Below are positions 7,906-18,207 of a DNA stretch of 64,000 nucleotides, in pieces. Source of the DNA: Pseudomonas maioricensis. GTDB taxonomy: Bacteria; Pseudomonadota; Gammaproteobacteria; Pseudomonadales; Pseudomonadaceae. The notes below the pieces were generated by a model that saw only the letters and a list, made by a program, of their open reading frames with translations, was not told where the DNA came from and made no database searches. The translations under genes were made by a program, and so were the position numbers. Positions within the stretch are counted from its first letter, which is position 1; the number at the start of each line of letters is the position of its first letter. The stretch lies in assembly GCF_022790535.1 (NCBI RefSeq), contig NZ_LOHG01000009.1, positions 137,083 through 201,082 of the forward strand, given 5' to 3'.

Positions 7906-9288
7906 TTACAGGATGTTGAATGGAATCGTGGTTACCAGACGGAACTCGTTGATGTTGCCATCAGCCTGGTTTTCGCTGGCGCGGTGCGTGGTGTAGGTCG
8001 CGCGGATCGCGGTGGCCTTGAGTGGGCCGGACTGTACAGCGTATGAAGTGCCGATGCCGTACTCGTAGTGCGTTTCGCCGTCCATTGCCAGCACGTCGCT
8101 ATACGCAGTGCCTTTGTACTTGGTGCCGTCGATGTCCCAGCCGCGAGCTTGGTAGATGTTGAATTTCAGACCTGGCACGCCGTATTCAGCCATGTTCAGC
8201 ACGTAGCTGAGCTGAAGGGATTTCTCGTTCGGGCCGTTGAAGTCCGACAGCAGGGAGTTGGCCAGGAAGATCGCGTTGGATTCGCCGAGGTAGTCAAAGT
8301 ACTCGTCGCCGTTCACGTCCTGATAAGCGATGCTAAAGCTGTGCGCTTTGTGGGTCGCGGTGAACGACAGGCTGTAAGTGTCGTTGTCGATCGGACCCAG
8401 CTTGCGGCTGCCGGAATCTTTGGTTTTGTAGTAGTTCAGGTTGGAGCTCAAGCCCAGTACGTCGGTATCGCCCAGTTCATGGGTGAACGCGAAATAGTAC
8501 TGGTGCCAGAAGTCTTCAACGTTGGACGCATACAGGCTGGTCGTCAGACTCTCGAACGGCTTGTAATCCATACCTGCCATGTCGACCCGATCAGCCGTCG
8601 CACCGTTGCCAGCATACGAAGAGCTGAACTTGGTCATGCTCTGTTGCATACGTGGCGAAATGCGATCGTAACTACCGGCCTGGAACGACAAGTTGTTGAA
8701 TTCGGCGCTTTTCAGCGTGACACCGTTGAAGCTCGATGGCAGCGCGCGGTTGCCGAGGTAGGCAATCACAGGGTTGTTCAGCGACTGGCGGCCTGCGGTC
8801 AGGGTGGTGTTGGAAACACGCGCTGTGATGTTGGCAAGACCTGCCTTGCTCCATTGGCCGACTGCGTCACCGTCACTGTCAGCCAGGGTGCGGTTGGAGC
8901 TGTTGATGAAGTGATCCTGATCACGATCCAGCGCAATCGCGTTGTAAAGTGCCAGTTCAGTGGAGAAGCCTACAACGCCTTGAGTGAAGCCCGAGGTGTA
9001 GTTAACGATGGTGCCCTGTTGCCAGTTGATGCGACGTGGGGTTGTTTTTGTAACGCCATCATCCTGATAACTGTAGCGCGGGGTATCTCGACGACGCAGC
9101 TCGTTCGAATACCAGTTACGCGTCGTACCGGTCAGGTGTGAATCTTCAATGAAGCCACCGGCCTCGCCCTGTGCACTTTTAGAACTCAGCTCGGTTGGCA
9201 CGAATGCCTGGCTAACAGGTTCTGCCTGGGCCATTGCGCTCAATGAAGCAATAGACAAAGCGACTGCTGCGGTACTGACTTTTCTCAC
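7906..9288 (-). CDS. opdP: OprD-family outer-membrane porin OpdP
   Basis: 460-residue outer-membrane porin. Signal peptide 1-22 (ends AMAQA) is followed by SQAFVPTELSSKSAQGEAGGFIEDSHL in two typical blocks, then alternating beta strands with the OprD-type RNWYSNE and the arginine-rich LRRRDTPRYSY region. The OpdP branch imports glycine-glutamate and similar dipeptides in P. aeruginosa. Its place inside the dpp cluster supports the same job: outer-membrane entry for the ligands of the four binding proteins. It could be called OpdC/OpdD by sequence alone; context decides for OpdP. Confidence 0.85.
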   Translation of the reverse strand: MRKVSTAAVALSIASLSAMAQAEPVSQAFVPTELSSKSAQGEAGGFIEDSHLTGTTRNWYSNELRRRDTPRYSYQDDGVTKTTPRRINWQQGTIVNYTSGFTQGVVGFSTELALYNAIALDRDQDHFINSSNRTLADSDGDAVGQWSKAGLANITARVSNTTLTAGRQSLNNPVIAYLGNRALPSSFNGVTLKSAEFNNLSFQAGSYDRISPRMQQSMTKFSSSYAGNGATADRVDMAGMDYKPFESLTTSLYASNVEDFWHQYYFAFTHELGDTDVLGLSSNLNYYKTKDSGSRKLGPIDNDTYSLSFTATHKAHSFSIAYQDVNGDEYFDYLGESNAIFLANSLLSDFNGPNEKSLQLSYVLNMAEYGVPGLKFNIYQARGWDIDGTKYKGTAYSDVLAMDGETHYEYGIGTSYAVQSGPLKATAIRATYTTHRASENQADGNINEFRLVTTIPFNIL

Positions 9289-9459: not shown

Positions 9460-11058
9460 TTAGTCGGCGACGCTGACGCCGGTGAAAGTGTTACGTCCGA
9501 ACGGGCTGACTTTGAAACCCTGCACTTCTTTACGCAGCGGCTGGTTGACCGTGGAGTGAGCGATCGGTGTGATTGGCACTTGCTGTTTCAAGTACTGCTG
9601 GGCCTGTTTGTACAGGTCGGTACGCTTCTCTCTGTCCGCGGTGGCAACAGCGGCCTTGACCAGTGCGTCGTATTTCTCGTCGCACCACATGGAGTAGTTG
9701 TTACCGCCAATGGCCGCACAGCTGTACAGCGTGCCCATCCAGTTGTCCGGATCACCATTGTCGCCAGTCCAGCCGATTAGCGAGATATCGTGCTCACCCG
9801 CCTTGGTGCGCTTGAGGTATTCGCCCCACTCGTAGCTGACGATCTTGACCTTGATACCCACTTTGGCCCAATCGGCCTGGAGCATTTCAGCCATCAGTTT
9901 GGCGTTGGGGTTGTAAGGACGTTGTACCGGCATTGCCCAGAGGGTCAGCTCGGTACCTTCCTTGATGCCCGCAGCGCGCAGCAGCTCTTTGGCTTTTTCA
10001 GGGTTGTACGGGTTGTCCTTGATGGTCTCGTCGTAAGACCACTGGGTCGGCGGCATGGCATTGACGGCCAGTTGGCCTGCGCCCTGATACACGGCGTTGA
10101 TGATCGCCTGTTTGTTGACGGCCATGTCCAGCGCCTGACGCACTTCCAGTTTGCCCAATGGCTCATGGCGAACGTTGTACGAGATATAACCCAGGTTGAA
10201 GCCAGCCTGTTCCATCACCTTCAGGTCTTTGTCTTCCTTGAGCTTCTGGATATCGGCCGGGCGTGGGTTGAGCGAAACCTGGCACTCGTTGGCCTTGAGC
10301 TTCTGCATCCGTACCGAGGCGTCGGTATTGATCGCGAAAATCAGGTTGTCGATTTTGACGCGGCTCGGGTCCCAGAACTCCTTGTTGCCCTTGTAGCGAA
10401 TTTGCGAGTCTTTCTGGTAACGCTGGAATACAAAGGCGCCGGTACCGATAGGCTTCTGGTTGATGTCGTGCAGGTTGCCGGACTTCATCAACTGGTCTGC
10501 GTATTCAGCGGACAGAATCGAGGCGAAGTTCATCGCGACGTTCTGGATGAACGCGGCATCAACCTTGTTCAGGGTGAAGACCACGGTCAGCGGATCGGTT
10601 TTTTCCACCGACTTGATGTTCTTGTTCAGGCCCATGCCGTTGAAGTACGGGAATTCGGTCGGGTAAGCGACACGAAACGGGTGATCCTGTTTGAGCATGC
10701 GATTGAACGTGAACAGCACGTCATCGGCGTTGAACTCGCGGGTTGGTTTGAAGTACGGCGTGGTGTGGAACTTCACCCCTTCGCGCAAGTGGAAGGTGTA
10801 GGTCAGGCCGTCTTCGGAAACATCCCACTTGGTGGCCAGTGCCGGGATGACTGCCGTGCTGCCCTGTTCGAATTCTGTCAGGCGATTGTAGATCGGTTCG
10901 GCGGCGTCGTTATCGGTGCCGGCCGTGTACTGGGCGATGTCGAAACCTGCCGGGCTGCCTTCCGAGCAAAACACCAGATTGCTTGCGGCTTGAGCCGCAG
11001 GCGTCATGCCCAGCAAACCAAGGCTGAACAACGACGACATGGCAATGGTTTTACGCAT
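9460..11058 (-). CDS. dppA: Periplasmic dipeptide-binding protein (DppA family), upstream of opdP
   Basis: 532-residue SBP_bac_5 protein. Signal peptide 1-24 (ends PAAQA). The mature start is ASNLVFCSEGSPAGFD. Core motifs NADDVLFTFNRM, KPIGTGAFVF and GWTGDNGDPDNW are present. Position directly before opdP matches DppA3 of P. aeruginosa. It is closely similar to the next protein (11414-13042), including the run LAVNAMPPTQWSYD, which indicates recent duplication. It should bind peptides for DppBCDF. Confidence 0.9.
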   Translation of the reverse strand: MRKTIAMSSLFSLGLLGMTPAAQAASNLVFCSEGSPAGFDIAQYTAGTDNDAAEPIYNRLTEFEQGSTAVIPALATKWDVSEDGLTYTFHLREGVKFHTTPYFKPTREFNADDVLFTFNRMLKQDHPFRVAYPTEFPYFNGMGLNKNIKSVEKTDPLTVVFTLNKVDAAFIQNVAMNFASILSAEYADQLMKSGNLHDINQKPIGTGAFVFQRYQKDSQIRYKGNKEFWDPSRVKIDNLIFAINTDASVRMQKLKANECQVSLNPRPADIQKLKEDKDLKVMEQAGFNLGYISYNVRHEPLGKLEVRQALDMAVNKQAIINAVYQGAGQLAVNAMPPTQWSYDETIKDNPYNPEKAKELLRAAGIKEGTELTLWAMPVQRPYNPNAKLMAEMLQADWAKVGIKVKIVSYEWGEYLKRTKAGEHDISLIGWTGDNGDPDNWMGTLYSCAAIGGNNYSMWCDEKYDALVKAAVATADREKRTDLYKQAQQYLKQQVPITPIAHSTVNQPLRKEVQGFKVSPFGRNTFTGVSVAD

Positions 11059-11413
11059 GATGATCCTTATCCTTCAAGTGAGTAGTTAATGCCCAACAAT
11101 TGCCAGGCAAAGCATTGCCTGCAAGCTGGAAGCCTTCTCGACTGCTCAGTAACAAAATGAAATAGCTTGGCCCGCGCCCTCGAAGGTATGTCCGTTGGGC
11201 GAGACTGTATGTAGTACCTGGTGCCTAAAAGCGCGTAGGAAACTTCTGTATGTAGTTAGCGCACTTTATGTAGGCGCTGCCGAAGGCTGCGATAGCGTTA
11301 TATCTGACGCACCGCGATTCGCAGCCTTCGGCAGCTCCTATAAGGAAATACGAATATTTATATATCCGACAAAAGGAAGTAACTGCGCTGTTTGACAGCG
11401 CAGTTACTTGGTC
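11059..11413. other. Intergenic region with REP pair, no gene
   Basis: 355 bases between two binding-protein genes. It holds a REP pair at 11269-11340 (arms TGTAGGCGCTGCCGAAGGCTGCGA and its complement). The remaining sequence upstream of the gene at 11058 probably contains that gene's own promoter, but I cannot name convincing boxes. No credible reading frame. Confidence 0.6.
11269..11342. repeat. REP inverted-repeat element, family GCTGCCGAAGGCTGCGA
   Basis: Arms 11269-11292 and 11319-11340 are inverted repeats with a loop of about 26 bases. This is the second REP family of the window (core GCCGAAGGCTGCGA); matching copies are at 41801 and 44131. Confidence 0.85.
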
Positions 11414-13042
11414 TTACTTGCCGGTAACGCTAACGCCGTAGAACGAGTTCAGACCAAACGGGCTGATCTTGAAGTCTTGTACGGTAGTGCGCATCGGTTG
11501 GTAAACCGTCGAGTGCGCGATAGGCGTCATTGGCACGGCCTCTTTGAGGAGGTGCTGTGCCTGTTTATACAGTTCGGTACGCTTGGCCTGGTCGGTCGTT
11601 TCCTTGGCCTGGTGGATCAAGGTATCGAACGGCTTGTCACACCATTTGGCAAAGTTGTTGCCGTTGATGGCGTCACAGCCAAACAGGGTACCCAGCCAGT
11701 TGTCCGGGTCACCATTGTCACCGCTCCAGCCAATCAGCATTGCGCCGTTTTCACCGGCTTTGGCGCGCTTGATGTACTCGCCCCACTCATAGCTGACGAT
11801 CTTGGCGTTGATACCGATTTTCTTCCAGTCGGACTGGAGCATCTCGGCCATCAGTTTGGCGTTCGGGTTGTAAGGACGCTGAACCGGCATCGCCCACAGG
11901 GTGATTTCGGTGCCTTCCTTGATGCCAGCCTGCTTGAGCAAGGCTTTGGCTTTTTCAACGTCAAACGGTGCATCTTTGATGGTGGTGTCGTAAGACCACT
12001 GGGTTGGCGGCATGGCGTTCACAGCCAGTTGGCCCGCGCCCTGATACACCGCATCAATGATGCCTTGCTTGTTCACGGCCATGTCCAGGGCCTGGCGAAC
12101 TTCCTTGATGGCCAGAGGGTTTGGCTGATCGCTACCCTTGATCTTGTCCATGGTGTTGTAAGCGATGTAACCCAGGTTGAAGCCTGCCTGATCCGGCATC
12201 TTCAGGTCCTTGTCGGCCTTGAGTGGAGCGAGGTCGGCAGGGCGCGGGTAAGCGGTGATCTGGCATTCGCCTTTCTTGAGCTTCTGCGCACGAACCGAAG
12301 CATCGGTAGTGATGGCGAAGATCAGGTTGTCGATTTTGACGTCTTCAGGCTTCCAGTAGTCCTTGTTCCCGGTGTAACGGATATTGGAGTCTTTCTGGTA
12401 GCTCTTGAAGACGAAAGGACCGGTGCCGATAGGCTGCTGATTGATCAGCTCCGGCTTGCCTTCCTTGAGCAGCTTGTCAGCGTATTCAGCAGACTGGATG
12501 GACGCGAAGCTCATGGCCAGGTTCTGGATGAAAGCAGCGTCGACTGTGCCTAGCGTCATCTTGACGGTGTGGGCATCAACCTTCTCGATCTTGGTGATGT
12601 TGGTGTCCATCGCCATGTCGGTGAAATACGGGAACTCGGTCGGATAGGCTTTGCGGTACGGCATATCCTTGTCGATCATGCGATTAAACGTGAACAGCAC
12701 GTCATCAGCATTGAATTCGCGGGTTGGCTTGAAGTACGGGGTGGTGTGGAACTTGACGCCTTCACGCAGGTGGAAGGTGTAAGTCAGGCCATCCGGGGAC
12801 ACGTCCCAGCTGGTGGCCAGGCCTGGTACTACAGCGGTACCGCCACGTTCGAACTGGCTCAAACGGTTGAAAACCGTTTCCGCTGCTGCGTCGAAGTCGG
12901 TACCAGTGGTGTATTGGCCTGGGTCGAAACCGGCCGGGCTGCCTTCGGAGCAGAACACGAGGTTCGATGCCGCTTGAGCGAAAGGAGCTGCAGTGATCAA
13001 GCCTGCACTGAGTAGAAACGGAATGACCGCGTGTTTGAGCAT
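11414..13042 (-). CDS. dppA: Periplasmic dipeptide-binding protein (DppA family)
   Basis: 542-residue SBP_bac_5 protein, the longest of the four because of an insertion around DKIKGSDQPNPLAIKE. Signal peptide 1-24 (ends PFAQA), mature start ASNLVFCSEGSPAGFD. It shares NADDVLFTFNRM, LAVNAMPPTQWSYD and GWSGDNGDPDNW with its neighbours. Order corresponds to DppA2. The 283-base gap before it (13043-13325) has no gene and may carry its promoter. Confidence 0.9.
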   Translation of the reverse strand: MLKHAVIPFLLSAGLITAAPFAQAASNLVFCSEGSPAGFDPGQYTTGTDFDAAAETVFNRLSQFERGGTAVVPGLATSWDVSPDGLTYTFHLREGVKFHTTPYFKPTREFNADDVLFTFNRMIDKDMPYRKAYPTEFPYFTDMAMDTNITKIEKVDAHTVKMTLGTVDAAFIQNLAMSFASIQSAEYADKLLKEGKPELINQQPIGTGPFVFKSYQKDSNIRYTGNKDYWKPEDVKIDNLIFAITTDASVRAQKLKKGECQITAYPRPADLAPLKADKDLKMPDQAGFNLGYIAYNTMDKIKGSDQPNPLAIKEVRQALDMAVNKQGIIDAVYQGAGQLAVNAMPPTQWSYDTTIKDAPFDVEKAKALLKQAGIKEGTEITLWAMPVQRPYNPNAKLMAEMLQSDWKKIGINAKIVSYEWGEYIKRAKAGENGAMLIGWSGDNGDPDNWLGTLFGCDAINGNNFAKWCDKPFDTLIHQAKETTDQAKRTELYKQAQHLLKEAVPMTPIAHSTVYQPMRTTVQDFKISPFGLNSFYGVSVTGK

Positions 13043-13325
13043 GGTGGCCTCAGGTTGTTGTCATTTTTAAAATAGAGGATCTGACCTTGTGAGCCGATCT
13101 TGCCGATACTTATGCAGGGGCCATACCCAAAGCAAGATGTTGACGCCAAGGAAGTCTCAAAGTGTGGCACGACCGTACAGGAATGTCGCATAAGTGTAAT
13201 TTCTGACGCATTTGATCGTTTGCGCGTCGCATTCGGGAAGGTTTTGCGCACCAATCGTGCGCAGTCAAACGTGTTGAATGCACTCGATTGGCGCGGCAGT
13301 GTTACCAATTTTTCGAATGGTCCGG

Positions 13326-14927
13326 TTATTTGGTCAGGCTTACACCATAAAACGGCGTCAGGCCGAAGGGGCTGAGTTTGAAGTCCTGTACTTCCTTGCG
13401 CATTGGCTGGAAGACCCGGGAATTGGCAATCGGTGTGATCGGCACTTGCGCCTTGAGGATCTGCTGCGCCTGTTGATACAGCTTGATGCGCTCGTCGCGA
13501 TCTGTTGTCAGCTTGGCTTTCTGTACAAGCTTGTCGTAGGCGGGGTCGCACCACTTCGCGTAGTTGCTGCCTTTGACGGCTGCGCAGCTGTACAGCACAC
13601 CGAGCCAGTTGTCCGGGTCGCCGTTGTCACCCGTCCAGCCGTAGATCATTGCATCGTGCTCGCCAGCCTTGGCGCGCTTGATGTACTCGCCCCACTCATA
13701 ACTGACGATATTGGCTTTGATGCCGACCTTGGCCCAATCGGCCTGAATCATCTGGGCCGACATGCGTGCGTTGGGGTTGGAAGCGCGTTGCACGGTCATC
13801 GCCCACAGATTGATCTGGGTGCCCGGTGCGATCCCGGCTTCCTTGAGAAGCTGTTTGGCTTTTACCGGATCGTGCGGTGCATCCTTGATAGTCGGGTCAT
13901 AACTCCATTGGCCCGGAGGAATGGCGTTCTGAGCCAGTTGCCCGGCACTTTGGTAAACGGCCTTGATGATCGCCGGTTTATCAATGGCCATGTCCAGCGC
14001 TTGGCGCACTTTGAGTTGATCCAGTGGCGGATGGGTCACGTTATAGGCCAGGAAGCCGAGGTTGAAGCCCGGCTGGCTAATGACTTTGAGGTTTGGATCC
14101 TTCTCCATCTGCTCAATGTCCTGCGGACGCGGATAACCGCTGACCTGGCACTCGCCTGCCTTGAGTTTCTGCAGCCGAACCGCTGCATCGCCGTTGATAG
14201 AGAAGATCAGGTGATCAAGCTTCACATCTTCGGGTTTCCAGTACGCCGTGTTCGCGTCGTAACGAATCTGCGCGTCCTTCTGGTAGCGCTTGAACACGAA
14301 CGGTCCGGTGCCGATCGGCTTCTGATTGAGCTCTTCAGCTTTGCCCTGCTTGAGCAACTGATCCGCATACTCCGCCGATTGCACGGATGCAAAGCTCATG
14401 GCCAGGTTCTGCACGAACGCTGCATCGACGTTGTTGAGGTTGAACTTCACGGTCTGGTCATCGACTTTCTCGACGTTCTTGATCGTGGTGTTCATCCCCA
14501 TATCAGTGAAGTAAGGAGACTCTGACGGGTACGCCTTGCGGAACGGGTGGTTGGCGTCCAGCAGGCGCTGGAAGGTGAACAGTACGTCGTCGGCGTTGAA
14601 GTCCCGGGTGGGCGTGAAGTAATCAGTGGTATGAAACTTCACGCCGGGACGCAGGTGAAAGGTGTATGTCAGGCCGTCGTTGGAGACGTCCCAGCGTGTC
14701 GCCAACCCCGGCTCGACTTCAGTGCCGCCGCGCTTGAACTGCGTCAGGCGGTTGAACACCGTTTCTGCCGAGGCATCGAAGTCTGTGCCGCTGGTGTACT
14801 GGCTTGGATCAAACCCCGCGGGGCTGGCTTCTGAGCAATAGACCAGCGTGCTGGCAGCGTGAGCCAATGGCGCGCAGGCCAGAAGGGCGGTGGTCAAAAG
14901 CAGTGGTTTGAATACATGTTTTCCCAT
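13326..14927 (-). CDS. dppA: Periplasmic dipeptide-binding protein (DppA family), first gene of the dpp locus
   Basis: 533-residue SBP_bac_5 protein, DppA1-like by position. Signal peptide 1-24 (ends PLAHA), mature start ASTLVYCSEASPAGFD. Motifs NADDVLFTFQRL and GWTGDNGDPDNW are present. Start at the ATG at 14927 follows a GAGGG site. It is the most upstream of four paralogous binding proteins feeding a single DppBCDF. A perfect 8-bp hairpin sits in its leader (14953-14974). Confidence 0.9.
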   Translation of the reverse strand: MGKHVFKPLLLTTALLACAPLAHAASTLVYCSEASPAGFDPSQYTSGTDFDASAETVFNRLTQFKRGGTEVEPGLATRWDVSNDGLTYTFHLRPGVKFHTTDYFTPTRDFNADDVLFTFQRLLDANHPFRKAYPSESPYFTDMGMNTTIKNVEKVDDQTVKFNLNNVDAAFVQNLAMSFASVQSAEYADQLLKQGKAEELNQKPIGTGPFVFKRYQKDAQIRYDANTAYWKPEDVKLDHLIFSINGDAAVRLQKLKAGECQVSGYPRPQDIEQMEKDPNLKVISQPGFNLGFLAYNVTHPPLDQLKVRQALDMAIDKPAIIKAVYQSAGQLAQNAIPPGQWSYDPTIKDAPHDPVKAKQLLKEAGIAPGTQINLWAMTVQRASNPNARMSAQMIQADWAKVGIKANIVSYEWGEYIKRAKAGEHDAMIYGWTGDNGDPDNWLGVLYSCAAVKGSNYAKWCDPAYDKLVQKAKLTTDRDERIKLYQQAQQILKAQVPITPIANSRVFQPMRKEVQDFKLSPFGLTPFYGVSLTK

Positions 14928-14952
14928 GGAACCCTCGCGAGTGCGGCAGTGG

Positions 14953-14974
14953 CTGCCTGACTTTCATCAGGCAG
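14953..14974. promoter_or_regulatory. Leader hairpin upstream of the first dppA gene
   Basis: Perfect stem CTGCCTGA / TCAGGCAG with a 6-base loop, 26 bases before the ATG at 14927. It could be the end of the hetC transcript or a leader structure of dppA; there is no U-run to settle it. Confidence 0.5.
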
Positions 14975-15055
14975 TTGGACAGCGCAGGATGTCGTACTGT
15001 CGTGCCGCTCACAAGCCTCGCATGTCGAGAGTCGAAATTGCTTCCGATACCTGTT

Positions 15056-17275
15056 TTAAGCCTCTTTGCTATTGCCCATCGCCTTGGCGCTTTGGCGTTG
15101 TTTTATCTCTGCGACATCCTTGAGCCCGATGGCGCTACCAAGTTTCTTGAGATAGTCCCACGAGTTCAGACTTTCCTTCGCAAAGGTCTGGAACCTCTTG
15201 TGTACGACTTCCTGAAGTTCCTTGTGCAGTCTTTCGAGGTCGGTCAAAGAGCTGGCGCGTTTGATTTGCTCGGGATTTTTGCTCGCCCAATCAAGAAAGA
15301 TATCGTCCAGAAGGTAGGTGTCCTCCGGGTGTACAAAATAGCTGAGGGCGATATCGGTCGGTTTCATCTCCGAGCCAAACCGCCAGTAATTGAGCATGGC
15401 GCCCGCCACCTGCTTGATAGCGCTCGACGCGCAGCTTGCCGCCAGTTTATGCAACGGATGATCGGCATGATCCTTGGCCAACTGGGAATGCGTGGGATCT
15501 GTGGACCCGGTTCGATGGGGATCGGCCACGGTATGGGTCTGTATATCGTCGATACTGTTGCCGATGATTTGCAGTATTCCCTGGAAAATCGTGCTGTAGG
15601 CGTTGCCCGCTAAACGCAAGGGGCTGGAGATGACCCAGTAGTAGAGCTCAAGCAGATTGAAGCCGGGATTAGCGCTGGCCTTGTCACGGGCGGCAAGGAA
15701 GTCTTGAAACGTCTCCAGCAACCACGCTTCGTTATGTTCATTGAGCAGAATCAGCAGCATTTGCTCCGACTCGGAGCGATCGCCGGGCTTGGTCGGGGTG
15801 AAATCCCATATTTGGCCTGGCGCCAGGAGCTTGGCGATAGGGCCTGCCAGGCTGGCGATTATGTCAGTGCCTCCAAATGTACCGGTCACTACTGGCAGTT
15901 TGTGTTTGCAGTCGGCCGGGCCTGTCCACGGTAGTACGTCCTTATGATTCAGGGCAATGAGATTCAACTCGACAAAGTTGGAGTGCGCGAAAAAGTCTTC
16001 GAGTATATGCAGCGCTCCGCCCAGCTTGCGTAAACCTTCCGGGGTGTAACCCTCTTTCATGGCGGCGTACAGTTCCCTGTACATTTTTGCGCCTGAAAGA
16101 TGTATGTACGACTTCATCGACGTGTCGTAATCCACCTCCAGAAGTGGATCATCGTCCAGCACCCAGGCTTCGAACTCCGGATCGCGTTCAGCGGGATCCG
16201 CCGGGGTGGGATCTTCAACTCTCGGGTTGTCGATGTGATGGCTCGGGCGGTAGACCCCCAGTTTCTGCTCGGTCACTCTGAAGCTGGAACTGTCTTGGGC
16301 CCTTAACTCGGGAAATTTTCTGGCGGCCATTACATCGACCACCGCGGTCAGTGCTTCGCGCGACATGACCGCGGGGAAGTCTTTCTTCTGATTTTTGCCC
16401 CGGACGATCTTGGGATCCAGTAATTGCGCATGATCCCGAAGCCAGTTACCGAAATACATGGCTCGCAGGTCTTCTTTGGCAAAGCCAACCGCCTCCAGGC
16501 CTGCTTCGATTCGTTCGTGGCTGAAAAGGCCGTTGCCGCTGCCATCTGCTTCAAATGCTTCGCGGTCGGGGTCCATCGCGTCGCTCTCCAGCCGCACGAT
16601 GTCACTCTGTCTTTCCCGTACCGCTTGCATGCCCTGGGCGTAATTGATTTTGATGAGGTGTTCGGCTTTATCCCCCTCGACGTAGAGGCCGAGGATCAGG
16701 TCGTCTTCTTCCTGCAGCCCGGCCCCTGCCATGTGCAAAGCAAAGCGGGAGCCTTCTTCGCCGGCGGAATCCGAGTGCAGAGACGGTGTGCTGGCTGCGT
16801 GATGGGGGGCAATGTCCCGGCGGATTACATCGTCCAGGTGGTGGCCGAACTCATGAAGCAGCACGGCCAGCAGCTCCCAGGTGGCGTCGGGGTGTTTGAC
16901 GATGTGCTGCATTGCCGCCGCATGAATCCTGATGGTCCGGTCGCGGTTGTTGTAATCGGCTGGATAGGTACCCGACGAGACAATCTCGTAGCGAGGGAGG
17001 GGGACGGTCCCTGCGATCAGAGCTTTTTGCAGTTCCAGATACACCCTGGGAGGGATGTCCACGCCAAAAACAGTTGCCATTTCCATGATGAATTGAGGTG
17101 CAGCGTACGTACGGGCCAAACCGGTCAGGAGCGTCAGGGCAAAGGTACTGTCCAGGCGCTGTCGGCTCGTGCCTGATGAAGAGGCGAATGCGTTTTTGCC
17201 GACCGCCTTGCTGCCATGCATCAGGTGATTAATGTAGCGGGCGTTTTTTTTCGGTGAGGCAGTTTGAGGATTCAT
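15056..17275 (-). CDS. Het-C family protein
   Basis: 739 residues, recognised as a bacterial relative of the fungal heterokaryon-incompatibility protein HET-C. Diagnostic blocks are MYFGNWLRDHAQ (273-284) and GALHILEDFFAHSNF (420-434), the latter resembling the zinc-binding His/Asp pattern of the phospholipase C/nuclease fold. An HEFGH motif at 141-145 (HExxH) is a second possible metal site. No signal peptide. The start is the ATG at 17275, preceded by AAGGA eight bases upstream; an in-frame start at 17320 lacks such a site. It sits between the dpp cluster and the SIMPL/rox genes, which adjoin each other in P. aeruginosa, so it looks like an insertion. The molecular activity of bacterial members is not settled. 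Confidence 0.8.
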   Translation of the reverse strand: MNPQTASPKKNARYINHLMHGSKAVGKNAFASSSGTSRQRLDSTFALTLLTGLARTYAAPQFIMEMATVFGVDIPPRVYLELQKALIAGTVPLPRYEIVSSGTYPADYNNRDRTIRIHAAAMQHIVKHPDATWELLAVLLHEFGHHLDDVIRRDIAPHHAASTPSLHSDSAGEEGSRFALHMAGAGLQEEDDLILGLYVEGDKAEHLIKINYAQGMQAVRERQSDIVRLESDAMDPDREAFEADGSGNGLFSHERIEAGLEAVGFAKEDLRAMYFGNWLRDHAQLLDPKIVRGKNQKKDFPAVMSREALTAVVDVMAARKFPELRAQDSSSFRVTEQKLGVYRPSHHIDNPRVEDPTPADPAERDPEFEAWVLDDDPLLEVDYDTSMKSYIHLSGAKMYRELYAAMKEGYTPEGLRKLGGALHILEDFFAHSNFVELNLIALNHKDVLPWTGPADCKHKLPVVTGTFGGTDIIASLAGPIAKLLAPGQIWDFTPTKPGDRSESEQMLLILLNEHNEAWLLETFQDFLAARDKASANPGFNLLELYYWVISSPLRLAGNAYSTIFQGILQIIGNSIDDIQTHTVADPHRTGSTDPTHSQLAKDHADHPLHKLAASCASSAIKQVAGAMLNYWRFGSEMKPTDIALSYFVHPEDTYLLDDIFLDWASKNPEQIKRASSLTDLERLHKELQEVVHKRFQTFAKESLNSWDYLKKLGSAIGLKDVAEIKQRQSAKAMGNSKEA

Positions 17276-17493
17276 CCGTGAGTCCTTGGGGGTGTGCAGA
17301 CGCATAAGGTCGCGTCGCATTGAAATGAGTTGGGTGAGGCCGGATGAAGTTTATAGACGGGGCCTGACCGAAAAAGCAGGACCTGCCTTCAATTGCTGTA
17401 GGTGAGGGATTCAAGCGGGGTACGAGTGGTGAGCGATGATCCGGAGAGATGGCGGCAACCTGGGGCTGCCGCCGACTTATCAAGCAATAGTCA

Positions 17494-18207
17494 TCAAGGG
17501 ATGGCGACTTCGATCACGCCATCGGCAGTCACTGTTACATCGCTGGTGCCCGCTTCGACCTCAGGCGTCGGCGCTGCTGAGTCGCGAGCTGCTTTCATCA
17601 TCATGACGGGAGCACGCAGATAGGGCTGTGGGTAACCGGACGTGTTGAAGTTCAGGTTGACCACTTTGTAGCCCGTGCCGCCCAGTGCCTCGGTGACCAG
17701 TTGGGCCCGTGCGCGAAACGCCGTGACGGCTTCCTTGAGCAGCGTGTCTTCACTGGCCTTGCGGGTAGGTTTGGAGATAGAGAAGTCCATACCACCCATC
17801 TTCATATCGCCGAGCAGTTCACCGGTCAATTTGGACAGTGCTGCGAAGTCCGCGCTCTCCAGGCGTAGCTCGGCGCGCTCGCGCCAGCCGGTGATCTTCT
17901 GGCCTTTGTCGTCGTAGATCGGGTAGCTGTTGCGATTACCCTGGCGAATGGTGACGTCCTTGACCTGACGTGCCTGGCCAAGCGCCTTGTTCAGGGTTTC
18001 GGTAATTTCGGCCGCCAGTTTGGCTGGGTCGGTATTCTGCGCTTCGCTGTACAGCGTGACGTTCATCAGGTCACGGGTGACCTCCTGATTGACCTCCGCA
18101 TGTACAGAAACCTGGTTGTAGTTAACGCTGTCTGCCAGGGCTGGAACGCTGGTCAGGGCAGCGGCGCCGAGGGTGAGCAGGGCGGCGGTAGGGCGAAGGC
18201 TGAACAT
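17494..18207 (-). CDS. SIMPL domain (DUF541) periplasmic protein
   Basis: 237-residue protein with a signal peptide (MFSLRPTAALLTLG..., cleavage after VPALA at about 25) and one SIMPL/DUF541 domain (VSVHAEVNQEVTRDLMNVTL at the start; ATNL-like VVNLNFNTSG near the end). E. coli YggE, the best-known member, lowers oxidative stress; the biochemical mechanism is unclear. I choose the ATG at 18207 for its AAGGAG site and clean signal peptide; the frame is open to 18459 but the extra 84 residues look random. It is divergent from roxS, as in P. aeruginosa (PA4495 beside PA4494). Confidence 0.85.
   Translation of the reverse strand: MFSLRPTAALLTLGAAALTSVPALADSVNYNQVSVHAEVNQEVTRDLMNVTLYSEAQNTDPAKLAAEITETLNKALGQARQVKDVTIRQGNRNSYPIYDDKGQKITGWRERAELRLESADFAALSKLTGELLGDMKMGGMDFSISKPTRKASEDTLLKEAVTAFRARAQLVTEALGGTGYKVVNLNFNTSGYPQPYLRAPVMMMKAARDSAAPTPEVEAGTSDVTVTADGVIEVAIP

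What the first reader, a model, noticed from the sequence alone, without database searches (positions are those of the whole stretch)
15056..17275. Bacterial Het-C protein inserted beside the dpp locus
The protein combines the HET-C signature with a separate HExxH motif near the N-terminus. In P. aeruginosa the SIMPL gene adjoins dppA directly, so this gene interrupts a conserved order. Its fungal relatives trigger cell death on contact between unlike strains, which raises the question of a toxin role.
Basis: partly seen in the sequence, partly recalled or inferred. Interest (0 to 1): 0.5.

Follow-up and report, generated by a model that had tools for sequence, protein, structure and literature searches.

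The report
Swappable HET-C effector gene beside dppA
A plant-associated Pseudomonas carries, at a site where related species hold different versions or none, a gene for a protein related to a fungal cell-death factor, here fused to a protease-like domain, which may serve against fungi or other eukaryotic neighbours.

Summary
It is a bacterial HET-C protein (Pfam E 6e-42) with a separate N-terminal HEFGHH...EEG zincin-like domain that reaches no Pfam family. The family is known: in print (seen second-hand), phcA of P. syringae triggers cell death in Neurospora, and HET-C was filed as a toxin domain, Tox-HET-C, in 2012.

'Inserted' is only half right. 34 of 298 sampled Pseudomonas genomes carry a full HET-C protein, 19 at this SIMPL-dppA interval, 14 at a second site near purL. 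What looks new is the site's behaviour. Species with near-identical flanks can hold HET-C proteins about 50% identical, with breaks close to the gene's ends; other relatives have an empty site. In the window's lineage a long zincin+HET-C allele sits where sister species hold a short HET-C-only allele of another clade. HET-C motif residues are invariant in 38 of 38 proteins; the zincin site is intact in 14, decayed in 14, absent in 10. So HET-C is the core and the zincin an accessory.

No linked immunity gene was seen. Best reading: an exchangeable effector aimed at eukaryotes, fungi first. Function, delivery and substrate are inferred; structure prediction failed.

The parts
15056..17275 (-). 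HET-C gene, 739 aa, start ATG 17275
   Evidence: ORF and translation; PF07217 E 6.3e-42; RBS AAGGA 17287-17283
16568..17155 (-). N-terminal zincin-like domain, residues about 41-236
   Evidence: Region shared by 28 of 38 relatives and lacking in 10; matches no Pfam family; dN/dS 0.22-0.24. Borders set by eye
16832..16855 (-). HEFGHHLD, residues 141-148, putative zinc site
   Evidence: HExGHHxD invariant in 14 of 14 proteins of the intact form
16751..16771 (-). D169 and EEG 173-175, putative third zinc ligand (gluzincin-like)
   Evidence: Invariant in 14 of 14; the ligand role is inferred
15206..16567 (-). HET-C domain, residues about 237-690
   Evidence: PF07217; dN/dS 0.08-0.11. Borders set by eye
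16229..16237 (-). HxD motif, residues 347-349
   Evidence: H347 and D349 invariant in 38 of 38
15968..16009 (-). HxxxDxxxH and NxxE motifs, residues 423-436
   Evidence: H423, D427, H431, N433, E436 invariant in 38 of 38
15881..15886 (-). TG motif, residues 464-465
   Evidence: Invariant in 38 of 38
14951..17498 (-). Segment absent or replaced in relatives: from the SIMPL stop to just before dppA
   Evidence: DNA similarity to the short-allele species L045 stops at 17498 and resumes at 14951; to the empty-site species L075 it stops at 17493 and resumes at 14960. A 62.8% identical stretch inside the gene remains against L045
17494..18360 (-). SIMPL (DUF541) gene, upstream flank
   Evidence: PF04402 E 1.3e-33; start codon uncertain, the longest ORF runs to 18459
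13326..14927 (-). dppA-like SBP_bac_5 gene, downstream flank
   Evidence: PF00496 E 4e-105

Best explanation
The gene encodes a stand-alone effector of the phcA / Tox-HET-C family, aimed at eukaryotic neighbours, fungi most likely. Its core is the C-terminal HET-C domain, taken to be a metal-dependent hydrolase of the phospholipase C / S1-P1 nuclease kind that damages membranes or nucleic acids in the target (the fold is a published prediction, only weakly supported here). The N-terminal zincin-like domain is an accessory: it may cut the protein free after delivery, cut a factor in the target, or license activation. The type VI secretion system is the likeliest route, because relatives in the same order carry HET-C on VgrG spikes; this step is inferred. 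The gene lies at a fixed chromosomal site where homologous recombination through the conserved SIMPL and dppA flanks exchanges whole promoter-plus-gene alleles. Shown: domains, motifs, conservation, pattern of exchange or loss, no linked immunity gene seen. Inferred: activity, target, delivery, role of the zincin, and recombination as the cause.
For: PF07217 E 6e-42; the motifs listed for Tox-HET-C in PMC3482391 invariant in 38 of 38 proteins; purifying selection. The zincin site is intact in 14, decayed in 14 and the domain absent in 10 of 38, while HET-C is always kept. No recurrent candidate immunity gene (ORFs of 60 aa or more) at 37 loci. Allele exchange: L036 and L047 have flanking proteins 98-100% identical but HET-C 53% identical; clade constraints rejected; the window's lineage nests among short-allele species on the flank tree. 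In the same order, 2 of 4 other HET-C genomes have VgrG-HET-C fusions and a third has HET-C close to a VgrG gene; VgrG-HET-C is also reported in Acinetobacter and Stenotrophomonas (passages). The genome has a T6SS sheath gene. phcA of P. syringae triggers cell death in Neurospora (passages).
Against: No activity was tested. phcA was compared only by family, not by sequence, and its paper is not held. Structure models failed, pLDDT 35 and 38. Profile comparison with S1-P1 nucleases was negative, and Zn_dep_PLPC touched only 4 of 38 proteins, best E 7e-4. The gene is not linked to VgrG or any T6SS gene in the window or at the 36 other Pseudomonas loci as far as annotated, and the T6SS sheath gene lies on another contig. 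Missing immunity can also mean that the protein is not a toxin. Old tandem copies with differential loss could mimic exchange: L052 still has two.
Confidence: 0.5

Rival explanations
1. An antibacterial effector or polymorphic-type toxin whose immunity gene lies elsewhere, or whose compartment makes immunity unnecessary.
For: HET-C is listed among polymorphic toxin domains (PMC3482391) and sits on VgrG spikes, some with LysM domains that bind peptidoglycan, in the same order.
Against: No recurrent neighbour fits an immunity gene at 37 loci (ORFs under 60 aa not looked at). PMC3482391 lists no immunity protein for Tox-HET-C.
Confidence: 0.17
2. A housekeeping or nutritional enzyme of the bacterium itself, such as a phospholipase or phosphatase with a protease domain, not used against others.
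For: Purifying selection, no immunity gene seen, neighbours at both sites are metabolic or transport genes.
Against: Patchy presence (34 of 298), exchange of deeply different alleles, decay of the zincin in half of the long forms, spike-borne relatives, phcA's effect on Neurospora.
Confidence: 0.18
3. The zincin is the active toxin and HET-C only targets or anchors it.
For: A strictly conserved HExGHHxD...EEG site in 14 of 14 proteins of the intact form.
Against: The zincin is decayed or missing in 24 of 38 proteins, HET-C motifs in none.
Confidence: 0.05
4. An anti-phage or self-killing defence protein, the bacterial counterpart of fungal incompatibility acting inside the cell.
For: Fungal relatives act in self cell death (PMC1325252 passage); allele exchange resembles defence genes (inference).
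Against: No PADLOC match. The flanking families that were scanned are not defence genes.
Confidence: 0.07

Closest known systems
phcA of Pseudomonas syringae (Wichmann et al. 2008; paper not held, seen as citations and passages in others)
   Same: A HET-C homologue of the same bacterial group; its expression stimulates cell death in Neurospora (PMC4065252 passage)
   Different: Not compared by sequence here.
Tox-HET-C domain (PMC3482391, passages)
   Same: All listed motifs present; no immunity partner listed there either; a metallopeptidase association is listed there too
   Different: The listed protease is the PVC-metallopeptidase; the domain here matches no Pfam family. No PVC or T6SS genes at this site
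VgrG-HET-C fusions of Acinetobacter and Stenotrophomonas (PMC6838775, PMC13055248, passages) and L110, L111 here
   Same: HET-C domain
   Different: Here no VgrG domain and no VgrG neighbour; a zincin instead
Fungal HET-C (PF07217)
   Same: PF07217 domain; balancing selection at the fungal locus (title of Wu 1998 in a reference list) is loosely parallel to the allele exchange here
   Different: No signal peptide or glycine-rich C-terminus by eye; extra N-terminal zincin

Membership tests
Het-C, PF07217 | Score over the curated cut-off | tested here: met
   144.3 bits against 21
Tox-HET-C (PMC3482391) | Motifs H, [DE], HxD, HxxxDxxxH, Nxx[DE], [ST]G | tested here: met
   H253, D281, H347/D349, H423/D427/H431, N433/E436, T464/G465, invariant in 38 of 38. 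Which H and [DE] the paper means for the first two is my guess
Tox-HET-C (PMC3482391) | Phospholipase C / S1-P1 nuclease fold | tested here: inconclusive
   hhalign against S1-P1 negative; Zn_dep_PLPC weak in 4 of 38 and in L110; structure models failed
Tox-HET-C (PMC3482391) | Toxic activity | not testable with these tools
   Needs expression tests
phcA orthologue | Same locus and sequence as P. syringae phcA | not tested
   No named P. syringae genome was at hand; phcA's locus was not seen in any call
Fungal HET-C | Signal peptide and glycine-rich C-terminus (PMC1325252) | tested here: not met
   By eye on the translation; no predictor was run
VgrG-borne T6SS effector | VgrG domains in the protein or a VgrG neighbour | tested here: not met
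   Pfam of the protein; neighbours
Polymorphic toxin with immunity gene | Adjacent immunity gene | tested here: not met
   No recurrent candidate of 60 aa or more at 37 loci
PVC-metallopeptidase | Match to that domain | tested here: inconclusive
   No Pfam match to any catalogued peptidase family at significance. That the domain corresponds to Pfam DUF4157 is recalled
Zincin metallopeptidase | HExxH plus a downstream acidic ligand | tested here: met
   HEFGH 141-145 and EEG 173-175. Only weak profile contact with known peptidases: Zincin_1 E about 0.1 in 3 of 14, M3 peptidases E 3e-4 and 7e-4 over the motif. Activity untested

The most novel reading that the evidence does not exclude
The SIMPL-dppA interval is a dedicated exchange site at which Pseudomonas species swap whole HET-C alleles, with and without a self-processing zincin, under diversifying selection from eukaryotic targets. 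It would be a bacterial, outward-facing counterpart of the fungal het-c locus.
Probability: 0.25. Interest if true: 0.65.

Novelty: new variant of a known kind. Interest (0 to 1): 0.42.

Why it matters
If right, plant-associated Pseudomonas keep an exchangeable store of antifungal HET-C alleles at one fixed site. The proposed bacterial origin of the fungal het-c cell-death domain (PMC3482391) could then be tested by comparing divergent bacterial alleles side by side. The zincin fusion, kept, decayed or lost in different species, is a natural series for asking what the protease part does.

Tried and rejected
AlphaFold2 on both halves, each with a 4-sequence alignment, gave unusable models; no fold search was run, since matches of such models mean nothing. 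Searches of solved structures gave nothing for HET-C and only chance-level hits for the zincin. NCBIfam and PADLOC: no match. Plasmids and phages: no tblastn match. Viral contigs: 62 pattern matches, none a relative. So a mobile-element carrier is not supported.

hhalign of HET-C against S1-P1 nucleases: of 11 loci the script took 9, and one of these gave no usable frame, leaving 8 proteins. The score did not exceed the decoys. Of 27 decoy families one did match HET-C (probability 95.6%); its member L071 proved to be a VWA7_N/HET-C relative, so it was no true decoy. The other 26 gave nothing.

A first impression that the purL-side loci were T6SS clusters was wrong: Pfam showed PTS, PhoX, Tat and T2SS genes. 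A type III export signal was considered because residues 1-41 of the window's protein have no acidic residue and several serines, but relatives vary, no type III secretin exceeded the cut-off in the genome (three matches under it), and no background rate was computed, so it was dropped; the rule behind it is recalled.

Full report
What is there. The gene runs on the minus strand from ATG 17275 to a stop ending at 15056, 739 residues, with AAGGA 7 nt before the start. It is a member of Het-C PF07217 (E 6e-42). Residues 141-148 read HEFGHHLD, and D169 and EEG 173-175 follow. That N-terminal domain matches no Pfam family (3 of 14 members touch Zincin_1, best E 0.095). The upstream gene is SIMPL, the downstream gene a dppA-like binding protein, the nearest of three in tandem. 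Three named relatives were found: Pseudomonas viridiflava p8.G8 (90% identical), Pseudomonas sp. ICMP 561 and P. folii (82% each), all with the gene in the same place.

Distribution. PF07217 hits occur in 36 of 298 sampled Pseudomonas genomes. Two of these (G037, G104) have only short weak matches. The G037 match (L071), and a second match in G234 (L069), lie in VWA7_N-type proteins; a second match in G022 gave no Pfam family for the frame scanned; the G104 protein was not scanned. The other 34 carry a full protein: 19 at the SIMPL-dppA interval (site A), 14 at a site near purL (site B; purL in view in 13, a contig end in the other) and one beside a ferrochelatase gene. With the three named records, 37 loci and 38 proteins were compared; L052 has two in tandem. 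In L037 the gene lies on the far side of SIMPL. Over the order, 5 of 194 genomes have HET-C, the window included. Of the other four, two carry VgrG-HET-C fusions (one of them with LysM), one a HET-C-LysM protein close to a VgrG gene, and one a HET-C protein with no VgrG among the two proteins scanned there.

Architecture. Of 38 proteins, 14 have an intact zincin site, 14 the same region with the site decayed, and 10 lack the domain. These states need at least 5 changes on the HET-C tree. The motifs named for Tox-HET-C are invariant in 38 of 38. Selection against the three named relatives is purifying: dN/dS 0.08-0.11 in HET-C, 0.22-0.24 in the zincin, 0.24-0.73 in residues 1-40. So HET-C is the kept core and the zincin an accessory. 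The zincin profile hit 27 of 296 genus genomes; 25 hits are in HET-C frames and two are M3 peptidases matched only over the active-site motif.

The site exchanges alleles. Of the 30 genomes whose SIMPL is most like the window's, 16 have HET-C directly downstream, one has it on the other side of SIMPL, one (G018) has it beyond an IS110 transposase gene, eight have dppA directly after SIMPL, and four show neither within the stretch held. The empty-site genome G026 (L075) is 81% identical in DNA on both sides of the window's gene, with breaks at 17493 and 14960. L036 and L047 match at 93-95% DNA identity over most of 18.6 kb, and SIMPL, dppA, RoxR and the ABC gene are 98-100% identical as proteins. 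Their HET-C domains are 53% identical, and the DNA match breaks about 210 bp upstream and 33 bp downstream of the gene; one 65% stretch remains inside it, and a second gap of about 170 bp lies 5.7 kb upstream. The AU test rejects one HET-C clade for L036, L047 and L050 (p 6e-51) and for the window's species group (p 4e-59); both groups were chosen after seeing trees. On a tree of four flanking genes the window's lineage, with long alleles, nests among species with short alleles of another HET-C clade (100/100 and 100/99), and allele classes need at least 5 changes, 4 without L052. The grouping of the window's allele with those of L055, L059 and L052 is only moderately supported (87/90). Exchange by homologous recombination through the flanks, or old tandem copies with differential loss, could both give this; the sharp breaks in the very close L036/L047 pair favour exchange. 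G+C gives no sign of foreign origin (55.9% against 56.7% around it).

What it probably does. Literature seen: HET-C in P. syringae was noted in 2005 (PMC554113 and PMC1325252, passages), the latter suggesting that it may inhibit epiphytic fungi. phcA expression stimulates cell death in Neurospora (PMC4065252 passage); PMC3482391 says a P. [quoted passage not shown] PMC4237756 cites the phcA paper for a T6SS role in this killing (passage). The phcA paper itself was not held, so these are second-hand. My own tests of the fold are weak: Zn_dep_PLPC touches 4 of 38 proteins and the VgrG fusion L110 (E 9e-4, under the cut-off), while a profile comparison with S1-P1 nucleases was negative and the structure models failed. 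No immunity gene recurs among ORFs of 60 aa or more at 37 loci (genes called by a simple script). The genome has a T6SS sheath gene on another contig and three secretin matches, none over the type III cut-off. I therefore hold an exchangeable effector against eukaryotes as most likely (0.5), with T6SS delivery a guess from relatives.

Novelty. The family and the toxin idea are known. I saw no description of the zincin fusion in Pseudomonas, or of exchange at this site, in the searches, which cover only open-licence papers and of which I read passages of nine papers, none whole. PMC3482391 does list a metallopeptidase associated with HET-C in PVC systems. I rate it a new variant of a known kind.

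Noticed in passing
9460-14927: Three dppA-like binding-protein genes in tandem, followed by an OprD-family porin gene at 7906-9288.
   Followed up: no
L052:6509-10377: Two HET-C genes in tandem at the same site: a short one and a long one with a decayed zincin site, of different HET-C clades.
   Followed up: partly
L039:10043-11050: An IS110-type transposase gene between SIMPL and HET-C.
   Followed up: no
L061, L064, L065, L067 (upstream of HET-C): At site B some HET-C genes follow tatC directly, with tatA/B-like, T2SS-K-like and PhoX genes nearby (families scanned on representatives; order).
   Followed up: partly
L071:7500-8489, L069:7662-8585: About 300-residue proteins that hit VWA7_N over its cut-off and HET-C weakly: a possible bacterial bridge between HET-C and the VWA7 N-terminal domain, with faint Zn_dep_PLPC hits.
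   Followed up: partly
L111:3947-8971, L112:5554-8361: HET-C proteins ending in a LysM domain, one fused to VgrG and one close to a VgrG gene.
   Followed up: no
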